NCBI GenBank assembly: GCA_009739215.1
Contig: VSJF01000016.1
Coordinates: 124,001 to 188,000 of the forward strand
Direction of reading: 5' to 3'
DNA: 64,000 nucleotides
Origin: Floccularia luteovirens
Taxonomy: Eukaryota > Basidiomycota > Agaricomycetes > Agaricales > Squamanitaceae
The position numbers were made by a program, and so were the translations under genes. Positions 1 through 27,048 of this stretch are shown in pieces. Position 1 is the first letter of the stretch; every line of letters begins with the position of its first letter. Under the pieces are notes generated by a model. The model did no database searches and was not told where the DNA came from. It worked only from the letters and a program-made list of their open reading frames with translations.

Positions 1-1
1 T

Positions 2-674
2 ATTGCTGATATTAATGATTTGCTTTATCGGCCAGATGGAGAGTCCTCGGAAGATTATATCATTGGGTCTCGTTTGATACCGCCTTCAGCATATGAAGAC
101 CTGGCAAATATCCGAAGAATATATAGTGAACTGTTTAAAGTGGGAACAAAGAAGTATGTCTTTGGTTGTACATAATGCGATGATCGAATTTAGCTGTTCA
201 ATAACCAAGTATCCTTGGAAATCTTGTTTGTTTATTTCCCTCGCATACTACTTCAAAGTCCTTCATTGATGTAGGTCGGGTGGCGGAAAATGCTGATATC
301 CGAAGTGCGGTTCACCTTGGATGGAGGAAGGTAAAAACTTATGTTGGGTGTTTGCCGGGAACGAAACTTGTAAAAAGGGCTGATAATTGACTATTGAAGG
401 AAAAAGTAATGAATGAATTAAACGAGAAAGAATCTGTGGATGAGAATTAGAAAAGATTCAAGGAAAAGCAGCTACCTTTATTGGAACAACTATCGGGTCG
501 AAGTAAAGGCAACTTCTAAGAACATTCTTTGGTCCGCATTACGGAAGATTAAGTAAGATCAAAGCAAAATATGATCCTACGGATTTGTTTATAGTTCCGA
601 ATGTTCAACGTTCAGGCCCAGCAGTTGGTAGCGAAAGATGGACGAGTTTTGCAGGCAAGATCTGTAGGGTGTAG
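2..674 (+). pseudogene. 3' remnant of FAD-linked (berberine-bridge type) oxidase
   Basis: Translated blocks in order match the C-terminal half of FAD_binding_4/BBE oxidases. Positions 2-150 give a block ending near GSRLIPPSAYEDL. A second block near 275-330 reads VGRVAENADIRSAVHLGWRK, the usual segment before the BBE domain. A third near 522-671 reads TFFGPHYGRLSKIKAKYDPTDLF, the BBE signature, and stops at 672. Family members oxidise alcohols, sugars or alkaloid-like substrates with covalently bound FAD and are usually secreted. The blocks lie in different frames. The stretch 330-520 carries in-frame stops (for example TAA at 504) and I could not find splice sites that restore one frame. I therefore favour a decayed gene, but a multi-intron gene cut by the window edge is possible. 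The 5' part lies outside the window. Confidence 0.6.
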
Positions 675-833
675 ATGACGTCACATGTATACGGCAATGA
701 GAGAAAGCACAAGGCCACAGATACAAATAACGCGTCAACAAACGCGTTTAAGTGTCACATTGTACTCGCGTCACAGAGTGTTACCGTGCCTTCAGCGAGT
801 CTTGGAAGACTCGTCAAAGCTGGTGAACTAACT

Positions 834-3800
834 ATGTCTGTTCTTCTTACCCCGCCTAGCACTGCTCATCGCACTGACAAGGAAAACCGTGTCTCATCAA
901 AACCTGCTCAAAGTCGCGTGGTATGGTCAACAAAAAATCAATATCATATCCTTGGATCACCCACAATATCATCCACCCGCTCCATCTCCTCCAAGGACAC
1001 CCCCGTCAAATCCATTCTCAAAAAAATTCAACATGACTTCCTCGCACCACCTCTCGAAGCACAGCGCGAAGTTACCCCAGAACCAGCAGACCCTCTTGTA
1101 AATCTCAACTACTTGGATTATCCAATGTCTCTCCTCCTTACACTGGACGCATCATTACGCGACCTTATTGAGGGTTACAATGTATTGGCTGCTCGACTCA
1201 GGGGTTCTGTTTTGGACTCGACTGACGCTGACGCTTCTTGGCCGCTTTTTCAACCACTCCGAAAAAATTCACAGGCGTTTGTCAACGCTGTTGTACGTGA
1301 TATCACACGGGTCCTAGACGAACCGTGGATACCACCGAAAATGGACGAAGAGGAATGCAAAGATGAAGCCATCTTATCACTTCCTTCCCCGAAAAGTAGT
1401 CCTACCAAGAAAAGATGTGGTATGACCGCAGAACAAGCAAAATATGCACGGGATATTTCTACGACGTGTCATTCTGTTCTTAAACTACTCGGAGTCATGC
1501 TGTCTATCCCAGCAATTCATAACGTGTTCAACGGTAGGCACTGTCATGCCTCATTGTTGAACTCTAATTTAATGTAATGTTATTATAGATGCACAATTAC
1601 GAGAAATTATGACAGCTGTCTTAGCGATTCCCATTTCAGCCAAGCTGCCTACCCCAAACGCCCGGAAGACATTTTCTTTGTCGATATGGCTCTTGCAAGT
1701 TCAAAGGCTTCCCAGCGAGGTGCTTCTTCCTCTTCGAGACCGTATCACAAACGCAATTCGTCGTGGTATTGAGGGAGAACTGGGCAAGGAAGGGAAGAAA
1801 GGGTCTGCTAATGATGGTCTCAAGGTGCATATACTCACTTAAAACGAGGAATATATTCATAACAATTCTACAGGCAATTCATGACCTGTGCATTTTCCAG
1901 CCATCCACATTTGTGCCGGCGTTTACTGTCATATTACCTTCCATATTTTCCAGCTTGCTCTCTCAATCCCTCGTCCTCCGGACTCAAGCATGTCATGCCC
2001 TTGGTGGGTTTGTAATTGGAAGCACTTCGATCCCCCGGTCATATGTGCATACACGCATTGCCAATGCTACAACTAGCTTCATTACAAACACGCAAGATTC
2101 CCCAAAGAGAGGAATAGATAAGCCGTCCGACTCACCCATCGTGCGCACTCTTCGAGCTACCCTCGTCGCAACCGAACCTCTTCATGTCGCACAAGGGCCT
2201 GTTTGGGCTTTGAGTGTTATCGCAAGCCTCATTGTGCTCTTGGGATCTCAGCTTTGCACCAATATCAGAATGACGAGGATCATGACAGCTTTGCTCTCCC
2301 TTACAATGCGCCACAAACGAAACTCCGTCCGAGCTCTTGTTTGTCTGATTTGGCGTCCTGTGGCATGGGCTTATTTCTCGCCTCGCCTTCCATCAAATAT
2401 TGACAGTGATGGAGAGTCAGAAGTTGAAGAAGATGCTGACCGAAATGCTTCCGAAACCAATGCACGAAAGGCGTACTGGAAAATAACAGAGACTGTGGTG
2501 GAACTACAGGCTGGTATTTCTACCATCGCTGCAGTGTTAGATGTGCTGCCGATAGAAGAGAGTCTGCACAAAACATACTCCATTCTGAACAACATGCTCA
2601 CCAAGTCCAACATAACCTGTGAAGAGGCGGTTGCTCTTATGAAGCGCCTTGTCAGCTCAGAAACTCAAGCTCCGGAATGGACTTTAAACAAACTTTTACC
2701 CCACTCTCTTTTTTCGTCAAATCCCGGTTTGCTTTCTGTCGATTACGAGAGCATCAGTGGTGCTGTGAAAATGGTTTACGAGCAGGTTCCAACTATAGAT
2801 GATATCAGGTGTCTCACTGTCGAAGAAATTACTACCGAGGGTGTATTTGATGGTTTTATAACAGTCTGGAAGAAGGCACTTACTCGATTAGTAGTATATG
2901 GCCAGACAGAGTTACCTGTGAGTATCCTGTCCTGTTTATTTCGACATCTGGCTCATTCCACCTCTTGACAGCCTGATTTGGTTAGTGTATGGAATGGGTT
3001 GTTGGCAGCCAACGTCTCAGTGTTGCGAGGTCCGTCTGACATGGAATCATTCACCGAAAATTATTCAAGTGTTACAACAGATAGCCAAGACGAAAACAAC
3101 CCGATGCCTGGATTTGCTACCCGAGTGGTAGACGTTATCATTGACATTCTACAAGACGAGGATCTTGACTTCCGGCCCAAGAGTCCACCTACACGCTGCT
3201 CATCACCCATTAAGATGGAACGACTCTCGGATATGACCAATGGCTTGATGAAATTGAACATTGCACAAAGACTCTGGGTATCTATGCCAGAACACTTCTC
3301 TCCTTCTGATGTTGAGCATGCTTCGGAAAACCTACTAGTTTGTCTGATGAGTAACGAAGAAGAGCTGGTTGGATCTAACGATGCTGCACGTATTGCTTGG
3401 TCTCTACTCTGCACCCAGATTTTGACGATTTCGGATTACTACACGATGCAAATGTTCTGGGGTTATGAACCGCTCAGAGATGGCACCAAACAGACTTGGA
3501 ACTGGACCACAAAGATGAGAGCTTTAGTTTGGAGGACTTGTGTGCAAACATGGCGAGAAGAAGAGGCGAATACAAATGGAGCTGCTTTGCTCCTTGGAAT
3601 TCCATTTACGTGCGTCTTTCGTTTTTGGTTTATATGCCTAATTTTCATCAAGTAATTTTCAAATAGTGACGCATACAGTTGGACTTTGGCGAGCGAAGAT
3701 TGTGAATTGTGGGAGCAATTCTTGGAGCACGCATTTAGCAAGGCTCTTGACTACGGGGTGGACTCGGTCACCGTTATTGACAATATCGCTTGCTTCATTC

Positions 3801-5670
3801 ATCAAAATCAAACTCCAACGAGAGTATCGTCTTCGCGTGCTCCAGATCTACTCATGGCCAATTTGGACATGTCAGATGCCAGAGATATCCCTGTAGGGGC
3901 TCTGGAGTTTGTTAATGAAGCAATGCTGACCACTTATCCTCCTGAGCCTCGTAACAAGGAGGCATCACTATGGCTCGTTCGTGCGCTTCAAACCATCATT
4001 GGCAATTGTCCTCCCGAGCTATGCCTGCGTTTATTCGAGACGATCCAAGAAGGGCTATGTCTTTGGTTCTCTGACGATTATAAAGCGTGGACCACCAGCG
4101 ATTTAGAGTATGATGTACGTATTATTACGCCTTTCCTTCTGATTTGATCGGTAGCTAAGATTGCTTTTGAAACGCCGTCCAGATCATCCCACTTTACCAG
4201 CACTTTTTGCTCCGTGTTGAAGATCTTCCAAAAACCAGTACAACTCTGGAGGCCGTGATGCCTGTCTTGGAGTCCGTCTTTTCCGGTCGTGAAGATATGC
4301 CTGAGCTTATACATGAGGCTTTCCATGAGTTTTGGCAATCGACCTACTCTGAGATATCTCCTCCCAAAGGTGTTTGGCCGACAACAATACAAGATCATTA
4401 CCTTTCTAAGATTTCACAAGAGGAAGTTTGTGAATCGTCTTCTCTGAACTCCGCTGATGAAGTCGCAGAAGAGATATCCGAGCTCGATGAGAATCTAGGA
4501 CACGCCTTTATTACTTTCCCCGCTGCTTCCTCTCTTAATCTCTCGACATCAGATATTGATGAAAAACCAACTTGCAGCAGACTTTTCGTACCTTCAACGC
4601 CCACTTCCATAAAGGATTCTTCTGGATGGAGTCCACCCCGTCCTCACAAGCCATCTCCAGGCCTCTTCGAAGCAATCGTTGCACCTCGATCACCTCAATC
4701 CCCTATTAGAGTACGCAAGATATCGAATCCTCGAACCCCTGTCCGAACCCCCCGCTCTGCTGTTCATGGCCTGTGTGCCAGTTCATCAAGAAAGCGGAGA
4801 AGGATTGCAGATGGGGACAAAGAAAATGCAAGTCCTAATCAGCTAGGAAACATTACTCCCATCGCGGATCGCATTGCGATGACCTCACCTCTGGCACCCA
4901 CATCTGCATCTTCACTTGGAATCAAACCCTTCAGTTTATCCAAGAGGTGTCTAGAAAGAGATGGACACTCTTTGGCGAGGCCCTCTCCATCTAAGAAAGC
5001 AAGATTTGAGGGCCAGTCCCCGTCATCAAGCAATTCTTTGGATATTGAGGAAGAACGTCTCGTTGAAACATCTCTCCTGACTGTGCCCTTCCCTACCCTC
5101 GAGAAGTCTCCCTCTAGTGGCTCAGTATCCCTTCCTGCATCCCCCTTTAGGAAACGTAAGCGGGCATTTATGGAGTCTGTAGAAATTCCACGTCTTGCGA
5201 GGAGTAAAACCATTTCTCAACTTCGGCATACTGGCAGTATGGATTCCCTTGCTTTTCCACCAAAAACACCTTCGACCAAAGGTATCAGGCAAATGCGGTC
5301 GATTAGCAATGCGGAAAACTTCTCGATCAGAACTTCAGTCAAGAGACGGCGGAGCGATAGTGGTCCCTTGCAGCCAGAGACTCCTTCATCCCGACTAGAG
5401 ACTCTGTTCCCGGATAGCGACGACTCCGTCATCACTTACGGGTCAGAGAGAAAAGCTATGCTTAAAAGGGTTGAACAACTTTCTTCTGACGATGACCCGC
5501 ACTTTGGTCAGGTCACTCCACATCATATTATATCTCCAGCGTTGCGCAAATATCAGGACAGTGAGCACGATGACGCATCTAGTGATGATATGCCTTCCAG
5601 CCCGGTCAAACGTATCGTTTCTAGGAGGTTGCGGAGGATTGAGTCATTTACGATTTGCTCCCCTACTTGA
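834..5670 (+). CDS. RIF1: RIF1 telomere/replication-timing protein
   Basis: Six exons join in frame: 834-1533, 1589-1824, 1874-2917, 2972-3609, 3667-4114 and 4183-5670, giving 1517 residues. The start at 834 begins MSVLLTPPST; 53 in-frame upstream residues look non-coding. The N-terminus has a TPP motif, a KEN box (16-18), an RVxF-type PP1 motif (RVVW, 28-31) and a SILK PP1 motif (60-63). Residues about 80-1100 are the alpha-helical repeat region of PF12231 (Rif1 N-terminal). The rest is Ser/Pro-rich and basic with another KEN (1235-1237) and an Arg/Lys-rich tail. Known role: RIF1 recruits PP1 to oppose DDK-driven origin firing and acts at telomeres and double-strand breaks. A diverged second copy lies 1.9 kb downstream in opposite orientation. 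All five introns have GT-AG borders. Confidence 0.88.
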
Positions 5671-5904
5671 AGTAGGATTAAGTTGGCCAGAGTCAACTGT
5701 TGAATTGCACCTTTAATTACCTTTCACTGTAGTGTACCATATTTTTTATTCTTATGTATTTTTTTAACAATGATGTAGATATTTTCGAACTGAAATGAAA
5801 TCTGAGTTTAATGTCGTCGATAAAACAATTATACACATGTATGGGCCCTAGCTGGATGTAGGTATATGATTACTCAATCGAAGAAGATTTCGAAACTAAT
5901 TTGA
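5671..5904. other. convergent 3' intergenic region
   Basis: This AT-rich spacer holds the 3' ends of RIF1 (+) and the WD40 remnant (-). I see no coding sequence or structured element in it. Confidence 0.5.
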
Positions 5905-6790
5905 TCATTTGTGGTTCAAAAACACCAACTTCCCAGTAGAGCGTGCAATGGTGTGAGGTGGTTCGTTTCTCAAAACCCAATCAATAACCTTCCGCCCATC
6001 CTGGTGCATACTCAACCATGGTGTGCTAATCTGACGGTATCAAAAGGCTCATGGAATGTGATGAATATGATAGTACTTAGTTAGTCTATCAGATTATCGA
6101 TGTCCCACATGATGATGCTACCACCATACGTCCCAGTTACAACTCGTCCCGAGGTCTAAACTTACATCTGCGCACGATCATAACCTAATGTATTGATGTC
6201 CCATGTGTGAAGAATGGCTTTTCCAGAGATATCTGTGACAAGAGAAAGTTGATTGGCAGTAAATGCAAAAAAGTCTTCGTCTGAGAACGTCATCATTGTC
6301 ACACTTCCAATTGATGATTTCAATGAAAGAGTAGCTGACAAATATTGAAGGCTCAATACTTGTCAGTTACTCGCCATCGCCAGAGAATTCTACCCAAAAA
6401 CTCCGAATTTCTATGATCAATCAGCCTCTTGCGTAGTCGACTAGTCTGTTCATCCCAGACATAATTGTTTGTCCAGAATGACATACAGCTACTCTTTGCG
6501 CGTCAGGTGAGAATGTTGCACGTAAAACCTTACTTAGATCACTCTTCATCGGCGTCGGGTGGGCCTCTTCCCCGTTCGTTCCGTTGCATATACGAGCTAC
6601 CCTACCGCGATCACAACTGTAGAGATGAGAGCCATTTGGTGACAATGCAATGCCGCAAACTCTGCTATGATATCGTTTAATGAAGTAAGGACGATTAATT
6701 CCGATTATGTTTGAAGAAAATTCGTCGGGTCCATCGCTGATTTGATCGATGCAGACAGTATAATATCAACGTTGAGGCAAGTATTTGATA
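5905..6790 (-). pseudogene. WD40-repeat protein remnant
   Basis: Several WD40 blades read on the minus strand. The block at 6680-6480 contains GIALSPNGSHLYSCDRGR and a blade with RATFSPDAQRVAVCHSGQT. The next blade (NYVWDEQTSRLRK, about 6470-6430) is in another frame, so one base has been gained or lost at about 6472. Further on, TWDINTLGYDRAQM is followed in the same frame by two stops (about 6162 and 6156) before the blade SGRVVTGTYGGSIIMWDIDN. A final block ends FLNHK at a stop at 5905. The frameshift plus two in-frame stops argue for a decayed gene rather than introns. The upstream limit is uncertain. WD40 propellers are scaffolds; no specific role can be given. Confidence 0.6.
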
Positions 6791-7584
6791 GATTGGTTTG
6801 CAAGCACGTAGCACACGATACCACAGATTGTTGGAAGCGTTGTGAGTCAAAAAGCAAGCTGAAGAGATGGAGTTAGTAGGAACGGTTCAGAGGTAAGAGG
6901 CTGTTGTTGTGAAGACAAGGTTCATTCACGCATGCTTTGGATTGATGGGACGATGGTGAAATCGATAGTGACAGACTTTATCTGGATCAACACGTGTCAG
7001 TTATATTAGTGAGCAATCACTTTGAACCCGAAACATCGTTAATAGTACTGGCCTGTCTCGTGACATGAAGTGCCACCGAAAGAACTATTAAGAGGGCACA
7101 CCACACCGGAATACACCGATATGGGACCGACATGAATTACGGGGTGAGCGGTCGTGATCCTGTTGAGAAATTTAGTCCATTGTGAATTGGACGGCCGCTC
7201 AAACGGCGATCTGTATGATGCAGAGCATGTTCTGTACACTTTGCCGTCCAGAAAGTTATACACAAATCAAGAATCTCTAGCGTAGTCATATGTCAACATT
7301 AACTGCCAATATACCTTTTCTGAGCTTTCAACTTAGTACAGCCTCCAGACAACAGACGGGGATGGAGAAGGGGGAGTTATATGTTGGTGCGAAATTGGTC
7401 GTGACAAAAAACTTTCATCACATAAGGCACATATGGCAATACCTCATTATTTTATGGGTAAAACTACATGGGGTATATGCTGAGATTATAGAACTAAGAA
7501 TGAACGCGAAGTCGAAATGTGATAAGGATAGTGGAACATAAAATATCATACACGAATTGAAAAGAAAAACAACAAAAAAGAGAA
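6791..7584. other. intergenic, no supported gene
   Basis: Short open frames exist (for example 7039-7263 on the minus strand) but show no recognisable domain. This stretch may contain further decayed upstream sequence of the WD40 remnant. The 7264-7584 part is the 3' flank of the diverged RIF1 gene. Confidence 0.4.
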
Positions 7585-10500
7585 CTACCTGGGATTTGCT
7601 TCAGCAGCAAGCTTTTTGCTCATCTGATCGTTGAGGACTACATTGATCTGATTAGCCAGACATGTCGCACGAAGTAAATCTTCTATAGGCACTTGCGAGA
7701 CACCTTCTGTTTCGGTGACGACAGCAAACGCATTCTCTAAAGCATCCAATCGCGCTGATGTCGTCTTGCTCCTTTTCAATGGTGGTGGCCGAAGCTCAGA
7801 CGAGGGTTCAGGTGTCCTTTGTGAGTAGGTCCGCCGTTTTCCAGGGCGGTATTTGAGTGGTGGACTAATCCTTGCATTTGGCTGTTGGGAGCCTGTAGGA
7901 GATTTAGTAAGAACAATATATTATATTTTACGTGATATTTTTCAATAAGGGTACCTGGACCATTCGGGATATCTGTATCACTACTGTTTTCAAAATCAGT
8001 TTCGGGCACTGATGCGTCTAGGAGTAGGGGTTCTGTTGAGAGACAGTTTAGGATCCATAGAAGTTTGGTAGGCATACCTGAGTTATTTTGCTGTGATCTT
8101 GGATTGAGTTGGAAATAATCAATATCCTCGTGGACTACTCCAGCGGGTGCACCCTCGCATTCAATTTCGTCCGGAAACAGTGACGCATCCTTCAAGCTGG
8201 GAGGTGACGGTAGAAGACGATTGGGAGTACCTGGTGCACTTTGTGACTTCCGCACACGTTGGTCATTTTTTGGTAACTCAGCATATTCGTGAGAGACATT
8301 CGCAGGTTGCTTGTGTTTCTGCGACGTGGAGGCGGCAGATGATGGTCCCCGCTTCCCATCAGACTGATTTCTTGGCGAAAGTCTTTGGAGGGGTGCGCTG
8401 AAACCACGACTTCTCGTTGTTGGCCCCAGAGAGCAATCTTTACCAATGGAAAAGTTACTTATCGGAGACGCTTTCTCCTGAATGGATGCCAACTCAATCT
8501 TGCGCCGTTTCGCAGAATTAGAACCTTATAAAAATGGTAATTCATATCTAGAACCATTATGCAGAGATTGGTCACTTACGCCTTGTATCAGCAGGTCGCT
8601 TCTTTCCGCCTTGAGAACCATTGGATAGAGCAACTTTTGAGGATGAGGGGCTCCGTGTTGAGGGGTCTTCGAGCGCGTTCTTCGTGCTCCCTTGAGAACG
8701 TCTTTGCATGTAGGGAACCTCTCGTTTTCTTTTGGACTCTGGGGAGGCAGGGACAACGGTGCTTGGCTACAAAACATTAAATTTCAGGTAAAATATTGGA
8801 GAAGATGTCAACTCACTGGGTGCTGTGATTCCGACACGATTGAAAAGGCATCACCAAGACTATCTTCACACATAACGCTCCATGCCTTTAAACAGACTTG
8901 GATATCACTCGGACATGATTGCAAGTCGTCACGATCATGATACTTGGACCGCCAATAAGTTACGAAAGCCTTTGGGCCTAAAGCATTGGCGCGTGAGAAG
9001 ACTGACACGAGAAATGGGGAAAGGGTATGAAGGATATCCATCGTAGGTTCTAGGAGTGAGATATTATCAAGGGCATTGCAGTATACTGAGGTCACCTGGA
9101 AGAGAGCATCGAGTCAGTACGAAGTAAAGAAGAGGACTACGACTTACGATCGTATCATGATCATCATTTGAGAGAATATTTCTTTCATCGCCAATCCAGT
9201 AGCAAAAGCTTTTTTGCAAAATCGAGATGAGTCCCACGACTAAGCTACTCGGACAAGAGGCAATAATAGCTCCCATACGATACAATATATCCATCATGGT
9301 AGGATGCTTCTCTGCACTGGGAGGATAGTTGGAGTATAGAATCCTATCCACAAGGTTGAATATTTCAGTTGCAAATGGTTTCCTGTCGGCGATCGCAAGG
9401 TCTTTTAGTAATAAAAGTACGACATGAGGTACAGATTGAAGCCTGCAATGCTTGCTTGAGATAAAAGGGGGAACGACTGAAAGTGGGTGACCCACAGTTC
9501 GAGATGTTTCTTATCAAGCCTTTGTAGAAAACGATCTACAATTATTCGAGGCTTGTCACTAGAAAGGCTTATTGTGCGCCGATAGGTATCTTCCCATACT
9601 AACATGTCCATGTCAGACATCTCCCGAAACCTGGAACGAAATATTACAAAAGTGCACAACCAAGTAGAAAAGAATGAAAACCCACTCGAAAGGTATTAAG
9701 AGAATCTTGATAATATCATTGTAAGCCATATCTTCATTATCCCAAGGAATATGTTGGCAGAGAGCTTTCCATAGCTGCTTTCTGATATGAATGTTCGTAT
9801 GATCAATATTCTGAAAAGCACCATTCACGAGGGTGGACAAGTCCATGAAAATCAAAGTTGCACAGGCCTGAGTCCAAGCCGTTTCCACAGAGCTATTTTC
9901 TAGATGATAATCTTGTGAAAGGATAGAGGAAAGAATATCCTTTGCAGGTGATGAAAGCCAGGATTTTGTGAATACATGGGTCATGGTCGTACACAGTTTG
10001 CGAACTAATACAAGTCGTTGGATCTGTGATACACTTTCACGGGTCTCGATGACAAATCGGGTGATTGCAGAGGTGATTTTCGTGGCAAAAGCGGAAGATG
10101 CGGTCAGATGAAGATTACCCTGCGTCAGCTGTGCTTGAGCTAGTAGAAGCGCTTGCCATACATGAACAAGTTCGTTCTACAAGACAAATAAAATATCAGC
10201 AAAGCTTTGTATCCACAAAATTTAATTCACTCGCCATATGCGTTTCTAAATCATGTTCCAGAGAGGTATCCATGAGGATTAAGCAAACCTCGAGCAGTTC
10301 ATCCCAATGGTGAACTATCTCCTCTTCAGAGAATTGCCGTACTTCATCAAGGTTGTAGGAAGGCATCAGACGAATCAATTCCTTGAGCTCTCCCACATCG
10401 CAATGCAATAATGTACCATTTATGAGATCGTGGGGAAAGATGGATGATGGACTTGTGTTTGTCGGGTTTCCCGGACGAGAAGCGCCTACTGCACTGACTA

Positions 10501-12025
10501 GCCTCTTTAGCAGTAAGAATCCTTCAAGGCGTCCAGAGTTCCCGTGCTTGGAGACCAAGTCCTGAAGAATGGATATGACTAGTCCAGAATTTGCATTCGT
10601 CTCACGTTGACCTTCTTCTGTTCCGAGGATAATTGCAGCAAATGTTATGCCAATACCGCCTTTGAGTTCTTGTGTAAGGACCTTGAATGCACGCTCCCGC
10701 ACATTGTCTGTAGTAGCAGAATCATAATCATCGTCCGCATCTTGAATATCTCTTTCTTTAGCGATACGAGAAAATGCCCAGAGAAGAGGTTTCCATAGAC
10801 AGGGGAGTAATGAAGAGATTGCACTCGTCCTTGGATTTGCTATACATTCTAGTGTCCGTATGAAAAATTTGATGGACGGTTTTTCGGTGAACAAGGAAGC
10901 GTCTGCGAGAACCACCAGACAGGTATAGACTGCGGCAGTCCATGATGGACCCATGCCTTTCCAGGACGATTCCTTTCCAATCACTGCAACCTTTATAACA
11001 TCGATAAGTGCAATTTCCGCCAATTTTCCACGAGAATTTCTGATGAAAGAATGTATGATGGAAGAGATTTCATCTTGTGGGAGGATAACTGTTTCATGAG
11101 TTATTTTGGTATGGGCGAAACCACTGAGGGCATAAGCAGCTGTCAGTCTGCATGTCACATCTGGAGAGATCAGGCATCTAAGTGTGTCAGGGAGCAGTGG
11201 GAGCAGTGGTTGAAAAAATTCTTTTGGATACTGGGTCAAGAAGTTGGAGATAGCCTGTATTCTAGCATGAGTATCAGATGAGTATACGATACAACCAAGT
11301 AACTTTCCTTCAGTCCGTCTATTCTCGCTTGTTCGCCATAGTCATTATTGACAGCACGGAAGATGGTCGAGCAGATGACACTCTTCTTAACAGTCACAAT
11401 GGCGGATGGGAGTCGCTGGGTTGATAGCACCCATGTAATAATAGACCACGTCTTGCTGGCACTTGGTGTCGGTAAGGTGGGCATAGAGCTGATGAGAAGC
11501 AATTCATGTAATAATGATTGAAGGTCGTGATCTGACACAAAATCAGCCGATGGTAATGCTTGATATTTTGTGTGACTGACCAGAGAAAATACAATACAAC
11601 AAGGGAAGTACGAAGATATCTGATACAAATATAAGAGCGTGATGGCATAATTTCGAGACATCTAGTCTACGCCTTGCAAGAAACAAATCTTGCTCAGTCA
11701 TAGGCGGGGTTGAATACATAGAACCAAGGTTGGGTGTTTGACGTTCGAGTGCATGATCGAGGATACGAACTCTACGTATATCGCGATTCAAACAGTCGAT
11801 TAATTCGGATGAATATGTCTTGACTTGCTCCAGCGCTTGAGTAAGATGGTCCAATCGCGAGCATGCAAGGACATGTTGCTTGATTCTATTAGATAAAATG
11901 GAATATGCCTCAATGAGGTCGTGTAGAGAAACATAGTCATGATGCGGGTCTTGGAGAGATTCTCGTAGGGTTTGAAGAGGTGACTTTAACAGATCTGTGA
12001 AAGTTACATCGCCGATTGTACCCAT
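7585..12025 (-). CDS. diverged RIF1-family paralogue
   Basis: Eleven exons can be joined: 12025-11581, 11531-11293, 11254-10217, 10176-9686, 9630-9496, 9442-9148, 9095-8817, 8766-8580, 8524-8078, 8032-7955 and 7892-7585, giving 1313 residues. Homology to the RIF1 at 834-5670 is clear block by block: SLHDLIEAYSILSNRI versus SLRDLIEGYNVLAARL, and LPTPSASKT..TQRLPS versus LPTPNARKT..VQRLPS. Exon-exon borders 1-4 fall at the same places and phases, for example the GAT codon split after FSG/FNG. This protein starts shortly before the DLIEAY block, so it lacks the TPP/KEN/RVxF/SILK segment. It ends in a predicted helical tail (SQVPIEDLLRATCLANQIN..). Introns 11292-11255 (38 nt) and 10216-10177 (40 nt) are very short, so those borders are less certain. 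A nuclear role in replication or telomeres is inferred from family only. Confidence 0.8.
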
Positions 12026-12963
12026 TACTGGGATAGGTAGCTTTTATTCACAGCAGAATCTGCAGAGTTGATGCAAAGGAAGACAATGTTGCAAAAACGG
12101 CTAGCCTTTATGATTGGTAAGGGAATGTTTATGTCTGCCTTCTGATACAGATCATATGTTCATAGTCGAATCGTAGTTTCTTGAGTGCAATGCCTGAATA
12201 ACGAAGTCGATAGTTATAGTACAAGTCCAAGTTCTAGAGGGGAGATCATAAGGCAGGCATCCGAGTCAGGCTGACAATTAACATGTAAAGAGTCGTCTGG
12301 CCACAGCACAGACAAAGCTAGTGTATGATTGAGTAACAATAACCTAACCTGAATCGTATTTCGGAAATGACTTACTAATGTAGACAGTTCACTTGCCACG
12401 CTTCAACTTGAGGAGCTGGTCCCTAAACTGCCGGCCAAGCGTTGTATCGATAAGAGTCAGCTAAGTGGTCGAGTCGCGGACTCAGTGCGCCTTGTGAGTC
12501 GTGTGCTGTCGTTTACTGTGTCACGGCACACACGTGACTAGCAAGGCCGTGTGACCCAACGCGCTGATTCAATTTTTGTCAAGCATAGACCTGTGGCAAA
12601 GGTACATTGCTCATGGCATGTTCCGGAACTTTGCATTTTTTTTACGAAAATACATCTAGGGTATGCTATGGAACTCCTCGGCACTCTTTGCAGCAAAGGG
12701 TAGAAGACTCGGAAGATTCGGCCCACGCCTAAAGCGTTAATCGTAAACTCTAACAATCCCTTCAGACTCCTGTCAATGCACATGTAGCCAAAATAAATCT
12801 ACATTCTGTAATTTATGCAATAGCAGTGATTCGACTTCACGGATCTTATTGCGAGTACAGGACAGCTACACATGTGAGTCAAATTTGATTTCCGTTCCAA
12901 CTATGTTGTGATCCGCTCCAAAAGTGATTTAGGCTACACTGTAATTCCTCCTATCGGTCCCTT
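12026..12963. other. intergenic region between diverged RIF1 gene and first PF10342 gene
   Basis: No coding sequence is supported. A CACGTG E-box core lies at about 12532-12537. The genes on either side are divergently transcribed, so promoters of both should lie here. Confidence 0.45.
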
Positions 12964-12969
12964 TATAAA
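12964..12969 (+). promoter_or_regulatory. TATA-like box of the first PF10342 gene
   Basis: TATAAA lies about 80 bases upstream of the ATG at 13047, a plausible distance for a fungal core promoter. Position is the only evidence. Confidence 0.35.
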
Positions 12970-13046
12970 CGACACTCCCTTTGCAGAAATGTCCTTGATT
13001 TCATTTTACCTTATCCCCAAATCATATTATCGAACTCACGCCGGTC

Positions 13047-13699
13047 ATGATGTTCAACTTCAACTTCTTTTTATCCTTTATATTTATTGCCTTATTTTAT
13101 TCCATCGATGCTGGCGTTATAAACGGCTGTATGCCATGCCAGGCGCATCTCGGCCAAAAGGTCAATTCCGCTAGGTCGGCGTTATTTTCTCGCGACGTCT
13201 ATAATCCAAAGATCACGAGTCCCACTCACGGAACAGTATGGAAGACGGACTCATATGTAAACGTTACGTGGCAAGTACCTCCCGCTTTGTTAATCTTTGC
13301 TCCAGCTGATCAACGGAGGATTTTCACCTCTCCTAGGGATATCCGTGATATGCCCGCGAACACGACGAATAAGCGTGGACGAATCGTCTTAGGCTATCTG
13401 AACGATGATAACTCAAATGAGCATTTAGACCTTGGTTAGCCGTTAGCCGTCAAATGATGGTTTGAAAATGTTCCCATTCTGATTGTTGTTTACCTAGATC
13501 ACCCGCTTGCAGAGGATTTCGATATTTCTGAGAGCAGTCGTCTTGTCAAAGTTCCACGAGTAAATCCTGCGAATAACTACATTGTCGTGTGTAAGTTGCT
13601 TTCTTGGTATACCAGTCAGAATCAGAAGACTAAATGGAACTTTCAGTGTTTGGCGATTCAGGAAATCGCAGTCCAACTTTTACAATCGATGGCAATTAA
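13047..13699 (+). CDS. small secreted PF10342-type protein, no GPI tail (copy 1)
   Basis: Four exons (13047-13270, 13337-13434, 13498-13590, 13647-13699) encode 155 residues. A hydrophobic signal peptide (about residues 1-22, FFLSFIFIALFYS) is followed by a spacer and one Kre9/Knh1-like beta domain: ITSPTHGTVWKTD..NVTWD, then IVLGYLNDDNSNEHLDLDHPLAEDF, then NYIVVLFGDSGNRSPTF. This is the fold of Ser-Thr-rich GPI-anchored membrane proteins (PF10342), found at the fungal cell surface. The coding region stops right after the domain, with no Ser/Thr stalk or GPI signal, so the product should be soluble and secreted. Intron 1 has a GC donor (TG|GCAAGT). The third gene of this cluster has a GT donor at the same codon split, which supports the GC-AG reading. 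Two nearby ATGs (13047, 13050) are possible starts. Confidence 0.8.
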
Positions 13700-14469
13700 A
13701 TTAGTATACAGCGCTAGTTAGCGGTGCCGGATGGATAGATAGTTCGTCATTACAATTCATTCGAAACTATTGGGTTATAATTCAATTGAGCCTCTGCTTA
13801 TTTTTGTGGACCCAATTAAGTACGTTGTATCCTTTTTACTATGACAAGTAAAGTTGGAGTTCGCCGAATCCTGTCTCTTTCTCTGGCAAGTAAATTCTAC
13901 ACCAAGCTGGGGGGTGTTTACTATTGCAAATGATCAGCTTTTACTTTGCCAACTGCATGCCCGTTCCGAAACGAGTATAACTGTATCTAGTATAAGTACT
14001 ACTTGAACTTCGAATTCTTATTTTCCATCACCACACTGCAATACTGTATCTTGATACTGAGTCCAACAAAGCATACTTGCACTAAAAGTTTCCACCTCGG
14101 CTGGCACCGCCTTTTTCTTTAATTGAATGGAGTAATCCTGAGCAATTTGTTGTACGTCTTGAAGATGTAACAATAACCTAGTTCATGGTAACTTGGGCTC
14201 TTTTGAGATCTGAGCCCCAAAACGCTGCAGAGATAGTCCAGCTTCCTGGAACAGTGCTTCTGAAAGGCATCAAAGTAGGAAAGAAGAGTATGGCTGGTTC
14301 AATCAATGTATTATCGCTCAGCTATAAAATTGCGGCAGTGCGTAGAGCGTTATACTTATCAACAGTAATATCCTTCATCTCTATTGGCAAGTCGACGCTG
14401 AGGTCGATATCATTACAACGAACAATTTCTTTCCAATTTTTGCACTCTTTTTACGCTCGTTGACTCACC
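13700..14469. other. intergenic, promoter region of second PF10342 gene
   Basis: An open frame at 14185-14463 has no recognisable domain and runs into the 5' flank of the next gene. I see nothing else supported here. Confidence 0.4.
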
Positions 14470-15095
14470 ATGTTCTTCTCAAACATACTGGCCACTGTCC
14501 TCCTTGCAGCAAGTGTTGCTTTCGCCGTCCCAGTTGCTGAGCCACACGAGCTCCTTGTTGTCAACCCACGCATAATCTCACCTAAGGCATCTTCCTCTTG
14601 GGTGGTGGGATCAAAGCAAAATGTTACGTGGGGTAATCTCCATTCCTGTTTGATACCAATGAACTTGAAGCTCATGTGGTTTTGTTAGATACATCTGAAA
14701 TACCACACTCTAGGCTGAATGCAACTGGGGTTTTGTTGTTGGGGCATAGGAGCAAAGGCAGCGAGAACCTTGATATCAGTTAAAGTTTTCTCATTATCTT
14801 GTTATGCAGTGACGTTGATGTTTCTTCCAGAGCATGCACTAGCAATGGGATTTCCATTAGTAACAGGGAGGGTCGAAGTGTTGATGCCGAAGAACGTTAT
14901 ACCACGCAAGAACTACTTCGTCGTTTGTAAGTTTGAAATACATTTCTTTCCTTTGACGACTGGAAACTGATTAAAATATTTAGTATTCGGTGATTCGGTA
15001 AGATCATCCTTGCACTAGCTTATAATTGCCCTACTCAACGAGCTGAAATAAAATAGGGAAATACTTCGGAGGAGTTCGCGGTTAGGAGGGCTTGA
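14470..15095 (+). CDS. small secreted PF10342-type protein, no GPI tail (copy 2)
   Basis: Five exons (14470-14632, 14689-14778, 14831-14926, 14984-14997, 15057-15095) encode 133 residues. The start MFFSNILATVLLAASVAFAVPV is a classical signal peptide. The domain reads RIISPKASSSWVVGSKQNVTWD, LLLGHRSKGSENLDI, KHALAMGFPL..VEVLMPKNV, NYFVVLFGDSGNTS, the PF10342 pattern. The protein ends FAVRRA soon after the FGDSGN motif, so there is no Ser/Thr stalk or GPI signal. Exon 4 is only 14 nt and is needed to keep FGDSGN in frame; neither neighbour copy has an intron there. The first intron sits 2 nt away from its place in the other copies (TGG G|AT rather than TG|G GAT). It lies on the same strand as copies 1 and 3. 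Confidence 0.75.
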
Positions 15096-15438
15096 TCTGT
15101 GCCTGAACTAATGGTAATCGTCGTCAATTTTGGCGATAATTAATAGACTCTGGACAGTGAACATTAATGCAATTTAAGGACTAATATCTGTCGTTTCTTC
15201 GCTTTTGTTACACATCTTCATCTTCATAATAATTCTTCGACATACCTAATGTTTTTGGTCATTTATTGTCACGTTTCTCAAGAAATAGTTGATAAATTCC
15301 AGTTTATGATATAACTTTGTGAATGATGGTAAATTTTGGTGAAGATTACGGAACTTAAACGGAATAAAGCAGTACAAGCAATTGGTAGTGTGGAGACCAG
15401 CAACTTTTGGGTATCATGGAACAGTCCCTAAGTTCCGC
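15096..15438. other. convergent intergenic spacer
   Basis: This AT-rich spacer lies between the 3' ends of the second PF10342 gene (+) and the EBP-family gene (-). No coding or structural signal is seen. Confidence 0.45.
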
Positions 15439-16346
<908 letters not shown>

Positions 16347-16962
16347 GGTCAAATTATCCTTATCCACGTTTTCAAATACTTATTAGAAGCGAAAAGGGGG
16401 AAGCTGTATAATCTGACGCTCGAGTGACAAGGAATGAAAGCTATTAAGAACGTTCGACTTTTTCAACACGAAGAAAACTTTCCAAATCAGAAGGTTAGGG
16501 TCGTGTTCTTGGAAAATTCAGGGCAGGTCAGGATTACGAGACTAAGCTTTCCTCCCACGAAGCAATCCAAGGGGAACAATTGTGTTGGACGCGGCAGACT
16601 GCAAGAGGAAGCCATGAAACACTTATGAAAAATTCTGTTCGGCATGATGGATCAAAGCTCTATGGTCGCAACGAGGGTGCAAAATAAGACATCGTACGTG
16701 AGTAAATATAAATCTGTCTGACAACCATATCGTTGTCCATAAGTAATGTTGCTTACTTCTATCATAACTGCGCTAGTGCCAATGATAAGAACAATCGGGT
16801 TTATGTGCTGATAGATCTCGACCAAAGTGTCACTCTACCCCAGTCACATGTTGTTCTGTTTGCCGAATCTACTTAAACCGTATTTCCTTCAACTGGAGCT
16901 CTTGTTGGTTTGGAAAGCTACCCCCACCCCACCCTTTTACACACTCCTAAAGTCCAACCATT
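16347..16962. other. divergent intergenic region
   Basis: This is the shared upstream region of the EBP-family gene (-) and the third PF10342 gene (+). A C/A-rich tract (CCCCCACCCCACCC) lies at about 16920. No coding sequence is supported. Confidence 0.45.
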
Positions 16963-17983
16963 ATGCTCGCCTTTACGACGTTATGCTTTTCTCTTCTTCT
17001 TTCTTTCGTTCACAGCTTCCCCTTGCTCGAAGTTCGTGATGTTTGGGCTCCTCCTATCACTAGTCCCAAGGAGAACGACGTCTGGACTATTGGTACAAAA
17101 CAATTAGTTACCTGGTCAGTTGTCATGTTTCTCATTGGATGTGTTTGGGCCTAATTCGAGTTATTGTAGGGACACTTCGACAAAACCTCAACAAGTGACA
17201 AACCCTGTTGGTCAAATTATACTGGGCCATATGGAAAACGACAGTCTTAACCTTCAGTTTGGTATGTGTTTTACGGTCATTATGGTGGATGCTTTGCTGC
17301 GCTGTTCTGCAATGCGCAGGAGGAACGTGGTGGGAGTTATTCGGTGTCGAATGTCAACTAATCCTTTGTGATATCACACAGATAATCCGCTTGCGAAAGG
17401 GTTCAACCTGACTGATGGACAGGTGGAAGTCACTGTACCAAATGTCCCTCCTCGACAGGACTACCTCATCGTTTGTAAGTTATGTACCGAACCGAAATCT
17501 TATGAGTGTTTCGCTAAATGTATATGATAAGTGTTCGGAGACTCGGGTAATACTAGCCCTACGTTCGTCATCGCTCAAATATCCGACGGTTCGTCTTCCA
17601 GCAGCAAAAGTGCACTTGCCGCGGCTACCAGCTCTACCTTAATATCTACTCCCATACCTATAACCGGTTCCGTGATTACAGGGGGTGAAACGGCCTCTAC
17701 CGAAGCAGCTCCTTCAGACGCGCCTTCGTCCGTTCTCACCAGCATCGAGGCATCACCTACTTCCATCACGCCAACCCCTGCTACTCCTACTCCTTCAATT
17801 TCATTAACTTCCTTATCCGCTTCACCATCATCAACAACATCTTCTTCATCAACATCTTCGGCTGCTTCGGGTACTCTTGGGGCATCTACCTCAAGTAGTG
17901 CCGCATTGTCGCTGCACGACAAACAGTCTAACATTGTTTTGTCTGTTTGCATGTCTGCACTTGCCCTCATGATTTTCATATGA
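16963..17983 (+). CDS. GPI-anchored Ser/Thr-rich PF10342 surface protein (copy 3)
   Basis: Four exons (16963-17114, 17170-17261, 17382-17474, 17532-17983) encode 262 residues. A signal peptide (MLAFTTLCFSLLLSFVHSFP) is followed by the PF10342 domain: ITSPKENDVWTIGTKQLVTWD, GQIILGHMENDSLNLQFDNPLAKGF, VEVTVPNVPPRQDYLIV, LFGDSGNTSPTF. Then comes a Ser/Thr/Pro/Ala-rich stalk of about 120 residues, suited to O-mannosylation. The hydrophobic C-terminus (NIVLSVCMSALALMIFI) after a small-residue region is a typical GPI-attachment signal. The protein is expected at the plasma membrane or cell wall. It is the only copy of the three with stalk and anchor, so it is probably closest to the ancestral form. 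Confidence 0.87.
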
Positions 17984-18319
17984 TCGGATGAATCAAACTG
18001 CGCACGGTTCTGAAATGAACATTTCAAAGACATTCTAGTTTAGTTTGCACATTCACACGCACCCCACCTCACCCTTACTATATCACACTAGCATTTAATG
18101 AACACACTATCTATGTTTTGCATGTACTACTACGTATCCTCGCAAGTTTGGCTTCTGCTTGATATATATGAATGAACTTTGACTCAGATTTTGTTCGAAC
18201 CTATATTTAATTATATTAATCGGAGTGTCGCGTATTTAAGAGTCACGTGAACCAAGGTAGTCAGCTAAAGGGTGAAATAATAAATATTGATACCAAACCA
18301 CTCTTCGTTGTTCAACATA
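17984..18319. other. promoter region of CAF1
   Basis: This holds the 3' flank of the GPI protein gene and the 5' flank of CAF1. A CACGTG core is at 18244-18249, about 70 bases before the CAF1 start. No gene is seen. Confidence 0.45.
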
Positions 18320-19565
18320 ATGGCCCGAATACAAGATGTCTGGGCTCCAAATCTTGATGTTGAGATGCGCAAAATCCGCGAAGTCATCGAGCTATATCCA
18401 TATATTGCTATGGTTCGTATATTTCAGTGATTCGAGCGTAGAGCTTTCAAAACAATAACGTTCTTTCAGGATACCGAGTTTCCGGGCGTTGTAGCCCGTC
18501 CGATTGGTACCTTCAAAACCTCCTCCGACTATCATTATCAAACAATGCGGTGTAATGTCGATCTACTAAAGATAATTCAGGTCGGCATTACCTTGGCCGA
18601 TGAGGATGGCAACTTGGCTCCGGAGTGTTGTTCGTGGCAGTTTAACTTCAAATTCAGTGTCAAGTGAGTTAGTTACCTGGACACATTTGTTGGATATATT
18701 CTGAATTTGTAAATTCAGTGATGACATGTATGCACCCGAATCGATCGAGCTGTTGCAGAAGTCGGGCATTGACTTCCAACGACATGAAGAATTTGGGATA
18801 CATCCGAATGATTTTGCTGAATTGATGATTACATCGGGTATGGTTTTAACACCTGAAACGAAATGGATCTCTTTCCACAGGTGAGGATATGCCTTTTTCG
18901 TTACGAGGAATTACCAATCGTCTCCTTATAGTGGTTATGATTTTGGCTATTTTGTCAAATTGCTTACTGCAGAATCTTTGCCAATAAACGAAGATGCTTT
19001 CTTTGCTCTTCTTCGAACGTGGTTCCCCGTCGTGTATGATATCAAGTTTTTGATGAGAGCATCAAAGGTCTTGAAAGGAGGGCTCCAAGACGTGGCGGAT
19101 GAGCTTGGGGTACGTGTTTTTAGTTTCCGCAAGGAAGATAACTGATATCTTTTGCTTTTTCAGGTTATGAGAAGCGGACCCTCACATCAAGCAGGTTCAG
19201 ACTCCCTTCTTACAGCATCAACGTTCTTCAAAATGAGAGATATATATTTCGGCGGTCATATAGATGATGCAGAATACTCTGGCAAGCTCTATGGTCTTGG
19301 TCAGACATTCTCAGTTTCCAATGGGCTTACTGATCCAACACGTGGGGGCGCAACCATTGCCGAAAGGGAAGACCGGGGTTCAGCAAGGGATGTCCATAAT
19401 CAAACTCCTGGGCCGAATGCCTCCAGTAGCCAGCAAGCACAAAGCCTTGCCCTATCACTGGGACCTATGCAAGCTAGTCTTCAAAATTCCTTGGCAGCTA
19501 CATATGGTTCAATGGCTGCCAATGGGCCATACATGCGAACATCACTAGTAGGTGGTGGACGATGA
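18320..19565 (+). CDS. CAF1: CCR4-NOT deadenylase CAF1/POP2
   Basis: Five exons (18320-18412, 18470-18663, 18719-18880, 18932-19109, 19164-19565) encode 342 residues. It is the DEDD-type poly(A) ribonuclease subunit of CCR4-NOT, which shortens mRNA tails in the cytoplasm. Catalytic residues are all present: D32 and E34 in DTEFPG, D153 in GYDFGY, H217 and D222 in [10 protein letters not shown]. Their spacing equals that of human CNOT7 with a constant offset of eight. The region WISFHSGYDFGY and the helices around [16 protein letters not shown] are typical. The C-terminus (about residues 260-342) is a low-complexity Gln/Ser/Ala-rich extension common in fungi. The gene converges on the transcription-factor gene that ends at 19667. 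Confidence 0.95.
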
Positions 19566-19666
19566 ACATTTTTCACCCAAAAAATGTTATTTGTTCTGTA
19601 ACAGCATATACATTGTATTCAATCAATTAGTATCCTAGTGTGTGTCAATAGGGAATGATTTATCAT

Positions 19667-22600: not shown

Positions 22601-22896
22601 AAACGGTAAGCAAACGAATAAAATTGTTGATTGGAATGATCACACCTCCGACATTCTTTACAAGACAGTTTGCGATGCTTCTCCTCAGGCTTCCCCTTGC
22701 CTGCCGTGGACGGCAAATCATACAACCTATCGGATTTACTCCCAGGTAAGTTTATGGAGAAAGATACCTCATCACGACAGCTGGGCAGGACAGAATCGGG
22801 AAACAAAGCCCCACTAGCAGCTTGTTCGTTGCGTGAGCGTTTTTGAGGACGCTGCAGTGGAGAAATTTGCGTTAAATTCCTCGAGTTTTCTTCCAT
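19667..22896 (-). CDS. Zn2Cys6 transcription factor A
   Basis: A many-exon gene of roughly 800 residues. After an NLS-like PQKRSRN, the zinc cluster SCKECRRLKLKCDRVFPCQSC..C fits CX2CX6CX5CX2CX8C. It is spread over five exons, including a 13-nt micro-exon (22582-22570, coding R-LKLK) followed by a GC donor (GCAAGC). A coiled coil follows (FILANTEQLHEKISELSDRV). The fungal-specific middle homology region reads NALWQYNLDAS, VCEIPLMEE, WYHLIFSDNKKAVGYAW, AQGLGLHRD and ERRKAVFWELLNMDCRM. The GLH part needs a 10-nt exon (21239-21230). The Ser/Pro/Tyr-rich tail (20122-19667) may be the activation region. It should bind CGG-type DNA sites in the nucleus; its targets are unknown. A paralogue is the next gene upstream. 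Confidence 0.85.
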
Positions 22897-23653
22897 GAAA
22901 GAAAAAAATTGGAGATAATAAGAACGGTGAGCAGGAAGAAAGAGAGGGTGTCTTCGCGCACACTAACGAGGGAAGCAAAAGAAACTACAAAGTCGTCGAT
23001 GACCCGTGACTCTCGGAGAAAAGGGTATAGCATCCGCTGAACTAGGCAACAAGGTCCTTTTCTGAGGGCACAACGGGGGTATTGGCGTTTATCATAATAT
23101 GAAACGCGTGGTGGTCATTCTCCATAGCCAATAGATTTCTTCGGGTGACCTGAGACATCTGCATTAATTAAGTACGAATTGTGAGACCTTGTCCAGGGCT
23201 GCATGTCATCGCATTCCCAATCAGTCGCTTTGTCGCCTTGTTATTGACGTAAATGCTAAGCGCTAATTACCGGCTCAATCAAAATGACCGATAATACCTG
23301 ATGCCGACTGGTGTGGTGGTGGCCTGTAAATTGTTGGATTGTATATATGCGCATCATCAATCGATACGTATGTGGGACTGTGTCTTAGGATGAGGAGAAT
23401 ATGGTTGTCTCACTTGGAGTTTACTGAGTAAATGGGGAATAAAAAGGTCATTTGATCAACTTGCAGATATAATTAGTATGTTTTGGATCATGCCCCGGTT
23501 GACTCGGAATGGCATTATATACAAATCACAGATGAATAAGCTAGATACAACTACGGGTCATTCTCAAGTACTGTATCCGATCAGAGATCGTATTGACGAA
23601 AGTGGTTAACTAAAATTTGTTGCCACCGTCTGATCAGAAATCAAAACTACCTA
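22897..23653. other. intergenic region between the two transcription factors
   Basis: This holds the promoter of factor A and the 3' flank of factor B. I see no coding sequence. Confidence 0.45.
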
Positions 23654-26600: not shown

Positions 26601-27048
26601 GGATCTGCGCTGCTCACCTTGCATGATGCACATGGGAAATTGCGGTCGCACTAGGGAAATAATGGGGGTTGCATTAGGTAGTGCATAAATGAGCTAGTAG
26701 GGATGCATGACGGACTTTAAGTTTCAGTCTGAGATAAAGAATTGACGTTAGTGTGAAATGAGCGGGAGTTGAATCAGGGCACCTTCTGCATTCGCAACAT
26801 GATAATGGGGTCTACGTATAAGAGAGTGGATGGTAAGATTGCGGTAGGATGAAAATGACAAATGCTATAACCTTTTTGCCCCCCGCCTTCTTCGTGATCC
26901 CATCGGTGATGAAAATGTGGTCTATTGGACCGTTATTATTGAACAATTGCTGGTCATCTTGGTCCTGTGTCCTTGAAGATATCGTAGATTTGCGAGGCCT
27001 CTTCTGCGGGCGTGTGTCTGGATCAGTATTGGGGACGGAGGGAACCAT
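23654..27048 (-). CDS. Zn2Cys6 transcription factor B (paralogue of A)
   Basis: A many-exon gene with the same architecture as factor A. An NLS-like PQKRPRK precedes a zinc cluster LSCCECRRLKLKCDRNFPCASC..C (CX2CX6CX5CX2CX8C). A coiled coil follows (FILANTEQLHTKIHEMSDRI), then LRQQIRNKLPPRADAE..QNALWQ, and a middle homology region with MCEIPVMEE, LVFSDQKKATAYAW, IGLH and HRRFLLWELLHLDARL. It also carries a 13-nt exon (26728-26716, R-LKLK) and a 10-nt exon (25382-25373, IGL-H), at the same places as factor A. Here the 13-nt exon uses a GT donor. The tail (24283-23654) is poorly conserved with A and holds extra His/Cys residues. Start: ATG at 27048; an upstream in-frame ATG at 27234 is possible but its leader looks non-coding. 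Targets are unknown. Confidence 0.83.

What the first reader, a model, noticed from the sequence alone, without database searches (positions are those of the whole stretch)
834..12025. Two RIF1-family genes in inverted arrangement, with different retained termini
The plus-strand copy (1517 aa) and minus-strand copy (1313 aa) align through the helical repeat region and share exon borders 1-4 with identical phase, so they are paralogues. RIF1 is normally single-copy. The plus copy keeps the TPP/KEN/RVxF/SILK head; the minus copy lacks it but has a helical tail (IEDLLRATCLANQIN) that I do not see in the plus copy. Division of roles (PP1 delivery versus another RIF1 function) is an inference.
Basis: partly seen in the sequence, partly recalled or inferred. 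Interest (0 to 1): 0.78.

Follow-up and report, generated by a model that had tools for sequence, protein, structure and literature searches.

The report
Ancient second RIF1 gene in mushrooms
This mushroom genome carries, beside its normal RIF1 gene (a regulator of DNA replication and chromosome ends), an old and fast-evolving sister gene that lacks the phosphatase-docking head thought typical of RIF1 and has its own conserved helical tail, which suggests that RIF1 jobs may be split between two proteins in some mushrooms.

The parts
834..5670 (+). RIF1A: canonical Agaricomycete RIF1, 6 exons (834-1533, 1589-1824, 1874-2917, 2972-3609, 3667-4114, 4183-5670), 1517 aa
   Evidence: Gene model; 208 homologues at E<=1e-10 (120 listed), many of the listed ones named 'Telomere-associated protein Rif1' by UniRef
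915..926 (+). RVxF-type PP1-docking motif (RVVW, residues 28-31) of RIF1A
   Evidence: Pattern search; an RVxF-type pattern lies in the first 200 residues of 104 of 125 A-type proteins
1011..1022 (+). SILK PP1-docking motif (residues 60-63) of RIF1A
   Evidence: SILK-type motif in the first 200 residues of 120 of 125 A-type and 0 of 4 B-type proteins
7585..12025 (-). RIF1B: paralogue without PP1-docking head, 11 exons (12025-11581, 11531-11308, 11254-10235, 10176-9686, 9630-9496, 9442-9148, 9095-8817, 8766-8580, 8524-8078, 8032-7955, 7892-7585), 1302 aa; start codon assumed at 12025
   Evidence: Gene model; 24% identity to RIF1A, E 3e-56; clade with P0001, P0002, P0003
10235..11254 (-). Exon 3 of RIF1B: core HEAT segment, predicted to fold like S. 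cerevisiae Rif1 residues 399-731
7588..7764 (-). Conserved two-helix tail of RIF1B (residues 1244-1302)
   Evidence: 50% identical to Imleria over the tail, against 27% for the whole protein; second helix, residues 69-98 of the exon 11 model, blocks at pLDDT 88-94; whole model pLDDT 68, pTM 0.37; not found in any of 125 A-type proteins
11255..11307 (-). RIF1B intron 2, phase 0, non-canonical GA-AG (donor GAAAGT)
   Evidence: same position and phase as the GT-AG intron 2 of RIF1A; the in-frame alternatives with GT donors that I worked out would cost 12 to 24 residues
10177..10234 (-). RIF1B intron 3, phase 0, GC-AG (donor GCGAGT)
   Evidence: same position and phase as intron 3 of RIF1A
6421..6765 (-). 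WD40-like fragment lying between the two RIF1 genes
   Evidence: Pfam WD40 E 3.8e-5, 24.5 bits against a cut-off of 27
1..33000 (.). Part of an arm of a large inverted duplication on contig C8 (this arm C8:122576-157000, other arm C8:43226-77658)
   Evidence: 99.93% over 34,437 columns; RIF1A and RIF1B therefore occur twice in the assembly

Best explanation
The two genes are the products of one ancient duplication of RIF1 in the Agaricomycetes. RIF1A (plus) is the ordinary RIF1: a HEAT scaffold that brings phosphatase PP1, through its N-terminal RVxF and SILK motifs, to its chromosomal sites, where in yeast it counteracts DDK at origins. RIF1B (minus) has the HEAT scaffold but no PP1-docking head, and carries a helical tail that probably makes it oligomerise (with itself, possibly with RIF1A). 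It most likely performs a PP1-independent RIF1 task, such as acting at telomeres or DNA ends. Shown here: homology, predicted fold, shared introns, absence of the docking motifs, conservation of the tail, age of the duplication. Inferred: nuclear location, oligomerisation, the PP1-independent task, and that the GA-AG intron is spliced. My odds: ancient paralogy 0.95; RIF1B functional in this species 0.7; PP1-independent scaffold given that it is functional 0.55; tail oligomerises 0.5.
For: Homology of the bodies. Predicted fold of exon 3 nearest to yeast Rif1-NTD with a wide gap. Five of five RIF1A introns matched in position and phase. B-type proteins in Agaricales, Boletales and Russulales form one clade with the window's, SH-aLRT 100; holding each order's A and B together is rejected, p-AU 4.0e-44, 4.2e-5 and 2.0e-108. 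The tail is in 4 of 4 B and 0 of 125 A (the profile was built from those four). Both PP1 motifs in the first 200 residues of 100 of 125 A; SILK there in 0 of 4 B. Between the window and Imleria the tail is far better conserved than the rest (50% vs 27%). In Imleria badia A (P0032) and B (P0002) are each on one contig of length 75,104. Printed work: Rif1 works against DDK at origins by recruiting PP1 (PMC3989773, title and abstract start in the listing); the HEAT region alone can regulate yeast telomere length when tethered, without PP1 site or C-terminus (PMC8053089: abstract and passages); RIF1 mutants blocked in PP1 binding activate telomeric origins without elongating telomeres (PMC7371424: abstract); C-terminal segments of budding and fission yeast Rif1 multimerise (PMC6362314: passages).
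Confidence: 0.5

Rival explanations
1. RIF1B is an old paralogue that is decaying in this species: the GA donor blocks splicing of intron 2, so that translation stops soon after exon 2.
For: GA donor at intron 2 and GC donor at intron 3, with an unusual GTCAGT at intron 1; if intron 2 stays in, the frame closes 23 codons after the end of exon 2 (ORF 11236-11661); the mirror-arm copy lacks one base in exon 10.
Against: No internal stop or frameshift in the 1302 codons of the window copy once intron 2 is removed; the tail, which would be free of selection if translation stopped after exon 2, is well conserved against Imleria. GA-AG introns are reported in an Agaricomycete, Ganoderma lingzhi (35 of about 92,100 introns; GC-AG 1,706; PMC11590231, passages), and a GC-to-GA donor change in Trema SYMRK is fully functional (PMC10668435, abstract). 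The flanks here (AG before, A after the GA) fit those reported for GA-AG introns in two animals (PMC7072748, passages).
Confidence: 0.25
2. Complementary loss: the single ancestral RIF1 had both head and tail, RIF1A lost the tail, RIF1B lost the head, and the two act together as a split RIF1.
For: C-terminal oligomerisation segments are reported for budding and fission yeast Rif1 (PMC6362314, passages), and a C-terminal DNA-binding motif is described as conserved from yeast to mammals (PMC3410773, passages); no protein among the 129 compared has both the SILK head and the tail.
Against: No detectable similarity between the B tail and the conserved C-terminus of A (68 A-type C-termini aligned; hhalign probability 0.1%), and no Rif1 chain among the PDB hits of the B tail profile at E<=10. 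A keeps a conserved C-terminus of its own. No outgroup RIF1 was at hand, so gain and loss cannot be told apart.
Confidence: 0.3
3. RIF1B binds PP1 all the same, through a degenerate or relocated motif, and is simply a second ordinary RIF1.
For: In animals the docking site sits at the C-terminus instead of the N-terminus (PMC3410773, passages), so relocation is possible; RVxF motifs are short and degenerate (recalled).
Against: No SILK-type and no RVxF-type match to my patterns anywhere in the window protein, P0001 or P0003; in P0002 the two matches lie at residues 178 and 744, inside the aligned helical body.
Confidence: 0.1
4. RIF1B is not RIF1-derived but an unrelated HEAT/ARM protein.
For: PF12231 does not hit it at E<=1.
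Against: and the five shared introns; PF12231 also misses the undisputed RIF1A; it hits the B-type P0001 at E 9.7e-4, below its cut-off (18.7 of 23 bits).
Confidence: 0.02
5. The RIF1A/RIF1B pair is a recent local inverted duplication.
For: The two genes are near neighbours in tail-to-tail orientation.
Against: 24% identity only and the trees. The recent inverted duplication in this contig is another event, which copied the whole pair.
Confidence: 0.01

Closest known systems
Canonical fungal RIF1 (S. cerevisiae Rif1; PDB 5nvr/5nw5)
   Same: RIF1A: HEAT body and N-terminal RVxF then SILK. RIF1B: the HEAT body; its exon 3 is predicted to superpose on yeast residues 399-731.
   Different: RIF1B has no PP1-docking motif and has a tail without detected similarity to a Rif1 chain in the PDB; Rap1-binding and Dbf4-binding regions were not tested in either gene.
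RIF1B-type proteins P0001 (Crassisporium funariophilum), P0002 (Imleria badia), P0003 (Russula earlei)
   Same: Same body, no SILK head, same two-helix tail; one clade with the window protein. Named only 'hypothetical' or 'uncharacterized' protein in the listing.
   Different: 25-32% overall identity to the window protein; their intron structure was not seen.
C-terminal oligomerisation/G4-binding segment of fission yeast Rif1 and the tetramerising C-terminal domain of budding yeast Rif1 (PMC6362314, passages)
   Same: Position at the extreme C-terminus; proposed role in multimerisation.
   Different: No sequence match and no informative fold match; the likeness is one of position only.

Membership tests
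RIF1 (plus-strand gene, RIF1A) | Similarity to annotated RIF1 proteins along the whole length | tested here: met
   208 proteins at E<=1e-10 (120 listed), many of the listed ones named 'Telomere-associated protein Rif1' by UniRef; best hit 46% identity over 99% of the query
RIF1 (plus-strand gene, RIF1A) | N-terminal RVxF and SILK PP1-docking motifs (fungal arrangement) | tested here: met
   RVVW at residue 28, SILK at residue 60
RIF1 (both genes) | Pfam PF12231 Rif1_N match | tested here: inconclusive
   No match at E<=1 for either window protein, but the model matches only 1 of the 14 A-type RIF1s scanned (P0059), is precomputed for only that one of the 120 listed, and matches 1 of 4 B-type proteins, under its cut-off; a miss says little
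RIF1 (minus-strand gene, RIF1B) | HEAT body homologous to RIF1 | tested here: met
   sequence; predicted fold of exon 3; the alignment behind the model held 26 A-type rows, no templates
RIF1 (minus-strand gene, RIF1B) | PP1-docking SILK/RVxF motifs, described as present in all RIF1 homologues (PMC3410773, passages; PMC4448129, abstract start in the listing) | tested here: not met
   No match in the protein; no SILK in the three minus-strand frames of 2.5 kb upstream, two RVxF-type patterns there at 13643 and 12981 without other likeness to the head. I therefore file it as a RIF1 paralogue, not as a canonical RIF1
RIF1 (minus-strand gene, RIF1B) | C-terminal oligomerisation / DNA-binding segment | not testable with these tools
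   A helical tail is predicted, but neither oligomerisation nor DNA binding can be computed from it; PDB searches were uninformative
RIF1 (both genes) | Function in replication timing, telomere length or DNA-end protection | not testable with these tools
   No expression or functional data held

The most novel reading that the evidence does not exclude
Many mushroom-forming fungi run a two-subunit RIF1: RIF1A delivers PP1, while RIF1B, a head-less HEAT scaffold multimerised through its own tail, takes over the PP1-independent work at telomeres or DNA breaks, the pair having been kept, and in some lineages kept linked, since before the Agaricales/Boletales/Russulales split. That would be a natural separation of the two RIF1 functions that yeast genetics has separated by mutation.
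Probability: 0.25. Interest if true: 0.8.

Novelty: new variant of a known kind. Interest (0 to 1): 0.57.

Why it matters
An ancient paralogue that kept the HEAT body but has no docking motifs is a natural separation-of-function experiment: it makes directly testable which RIF1 duties need PP1 and which need only the scaffold. My paper searches for RIF1 with paralog, gene duplication, Basidiomycota, Ustilago and mushroom/Coprinopsis listed no paper whose title or abstract start describes such a paralogue. They cover open-licence papers only; some searches listed 10 of 11, 8 of 843 and 8 of 14 papers; and of the papers those five calls listed I looked inside one only (PMC4748036, its RIF1 passages: no RIF1 paralogue).

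Tried and rejected
PF12231 in the window's own genome returned nothing anywhere, controls included, and is uninformative. The profile search with alignment A1 returned the same 14 proteins as the single-sequence search, so the census of RIF1B beyond four species is open; absence in other species was not shown. Of the 208 A-type hits only the 120 listed could be used. A scan of viral contigs with A1 found no relative. PDB sequence searches with whole-protein profiles gave no hit at E<=10; with the tail profile 15 hits, the best an esterase at E 0.04, none a Rif1; the fold search of the tail model gave none at E<=0.001, best 1.6. I considered that the B tail equals the conserved A C-terminus and found no support. 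I considered that the duplicate pair on contig C8 reflects two haplotypes present throughout the assembly: the 15 MCM matches fall into six loci, which speaks against doubling of the whole genome, but a local haplotype join or an assembly artefact is not excluded. A guess that some of the conserved basic columns correspond to the yeast HOOK lysines was not followed: only spacing suggests it. The comparison of net charge mixed a 340-residue piece with rows of about 1000 residues or more and is not used.

Alternative readings of RIF1B intron 2, worked out by hand: GT donors at 11379 or 11352 joined to the acceptor at 11255 keep the frame but lose 24 or 15 residues; a donor at 11303 with a later AAG acceptor would lose the first helix of exon 3. 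None gives the junction DGLK-AI that RIF1A has and that Imleria shares in full and Crassisporium nearly so.
Full report
The sequence and the gene models. The window lies in a fungal genome of 27.0 Mb in 22 contigs, as contig C8:124001-188000. On the plus strand, 834-5670 gives six exons with GT-AG introns and a 1517-residue protein. On the minus strand, 12025-7585 gives eleven exons and a 1302-residue protein. The minus frame is open throughout if two non-canonical donors are accepted, GA at intron 2 and GC at intron 3. Both sit where the plus gene has a GT-AG intron of the same phase. All five plus introns (phases 1,0,0,2,0) have a minus counterpart of the same phase at the corresponding position; the minus gene has five more. 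With codon usage taken from the plus gene, each of the 11 minus exons scores best in its modelled frame out of six, narrowly in exon 8.

How old is the pair? A search with the minus protein returned 14 proteins. The top three form a family with it (P0001 Crassisporium, P0002 Imleria, P0003 Russula earlei), and the rest are A-type. Their orders are Agaricales, Boletales and Russulales. In a tree of 40 rows (36 of the 125 A-type proteins, chosen by me for spread, and 4 of 4 B-type) the B-type is one side of a branch with SH-aLRT 100. On a 20-row tree, forcing A and B of each order together is rejected: p-AU 4.0e-44 (Agaricales), 4.2e-5 (Boletales), 2.0e-108 (Russulales). These groups were named after the first tree had been seen, the trees are of the quick kind, B-type branches are long, and the program warned of long branches meeting. 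But the tail, whose columns are too thinly filled to enter these trees, and the absent SILK head agree with one origin. For Imleria badia, the A (P0032) and B (P0002) proteins are each reported from one contig of 75,104 bases, so they are very probably on the same contig. In Russula earlei the contig lengths differ (74,010 and 136,221). The protein search needs shared exact words, and a second search with the family alignment returned the same 14 proteins, so how widespread RIF1B is remains open.

What differs. RIF1B has no SILK and no RVxF-type match to my patterns, and there is no SILK in the minus-strand frames of the 2.5 kb upstream. The RVxF-type and SILK-type matches in P0002 (residues 178 and 744) lie in the helical body. 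RIF1B ends in a tail predicted as two helices, the second long and confident, in a model of low overall confidence (pLDDT 68, pTM 0.37). A profile from the four tails finds none of 125 A-type proteins (best E 0.16). The tail is 50% identical between the window and Imleria, against 27% for the whole proteins; for Crassisporium and Russula it is 33% and 30%, against 32% and 25%. A-type proteins have a C-terminus of their own: 68 of 125 match a pattern around SSDDDPHxGQVTP near the end, without detectable likeness to the B tail. The B-type proteins also share, by eye in the alignment, two basic clusters about ten residues apart (KRPAD...AKRRK in the window) that look like a bipartite nuclear signal; this was not tested.

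Is RIF1B alive here? For: the open frame, the conserved tail, and precedents for GA-AG splicing. In the Agaricomycete Ganoderma lingzhi 35 GA-AG and 1,706 GC-AG introns are listed beside 89,855 GT-AG (PMC11590231, passages), and in Trema SYMRK a GC donor turned into GA is fully functional (PMC10668435, abstract). GA-AG sites in two animals have a conserved AG before and A after the GA (PMC7072748, passages), as here. Against: such sites are very rare; if intron 2 is kept, the frame closes 23 codons after exon 2; and the second copy of RIF1B lacks one base at window 7963/7964, which gives a 1238-residue frame without the tail. I put a working gene at about 0.7.

The inverted duplication. Searches with exon 3 of each gene found each gene twice, both on C8, in mirror orientation; at E<=10 the only other match was a weak one at C16, E 0.06. 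C8 (239,683 bases) holds arms 43226-77658 and 122576-157000 at 99.93% identity (9 substitutions, 16 gap positions), continued outward by a 20-kb stretch at 99.33% and by shuffled repeats. The centre, about 45 kb, is not part of the palindrome. MCM matches fall into six loci, so the assembly is not doubled overall. Whether the duplication is real or a joined second haplotype needs reads. It does not affect the antiquity of A and B.

Mechanism. Printed yeast work says that PP1 binding is needed for the origin role but not for telomere length (PMC7371424, abstract), and that the HEAT region alone (residues 177-996) suffices for telomere length when tethered (PMC8053089, abstract and passages). 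C-terminal segments of budding and fission yeast Rif1 form multimers, whereas a similar mouse segment showed no clear oligomerisation (PMC6362314, passages). From this I infer that a RIF1 with HEAT body and helical tail but no PP1 head would act as a PP1-independent, tail-multimerised scaffold at chromosome ends or breaks, leaving PP1 delivery to RIF1A. In the A4 alignment, six columns are basic in all 26 A-type rows; the window's RIF1B keeps three of them, so its binding surface may have changed, and the yeast telomere function needs three positive charges in this region (PMC8053089, passages). This is inference; no function was shown.

Verdict. Membership: RIF1A is a RIF1. RIF1B is a RIF1 paralogue that fails the PP1-docking feature and should not be filed as a canonical RIF1. 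Novelty: a new variant of a known kind.

Noticed in passing
Contig C8:43226-77658 and C8:122576-157000 (window 1-33000); outward C8:23069-43234 with 157372-177535: Large inverted duplication with two identity levels (99.93% and 99.33%) around a spacer of about 45 kb; real palindrome, local haplotype join or assembly artefact not decided.
   Followed up: partly
near C8:68271, opposite window 7963-7964: The second RIF1B copy lacks one base in exon 10, which gives a 1238-residue frame without the tail.
   Followed up: yes
window 6421-6765 (-): WD40-like open frame between the two RIF1 genes, just under Pfam's cut-off (24.5 of 27 bits); possibly part of a broken or intron-split WD-repeat gene.
   Followed up: partly
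window 5482-5670 (C-terminus of RIF1A) and A-type relatives: Conserved A-type C-terminal motif SSDDDPHxGQVTPHH, followed in many by SPSRxxVxRRxQR, found by pattern in 68 of 125 A-type proteins; role unknown to me.
   Followed up: partly
window about 8605-8495 (-), RIF1B linker: Two basic clusters (KRPAD...AKRRK) recur in the four B-type proteins at aligned places (by eye); resembles a bipartite nuclear signal.
   Followed up: no
C8:86787-89785 and C8:92781-95722: A 75% identical inverted repeat of about 3 kb inside the spacer of the inverted duplication; possibly diverged mobile elements.
   Followed up: no
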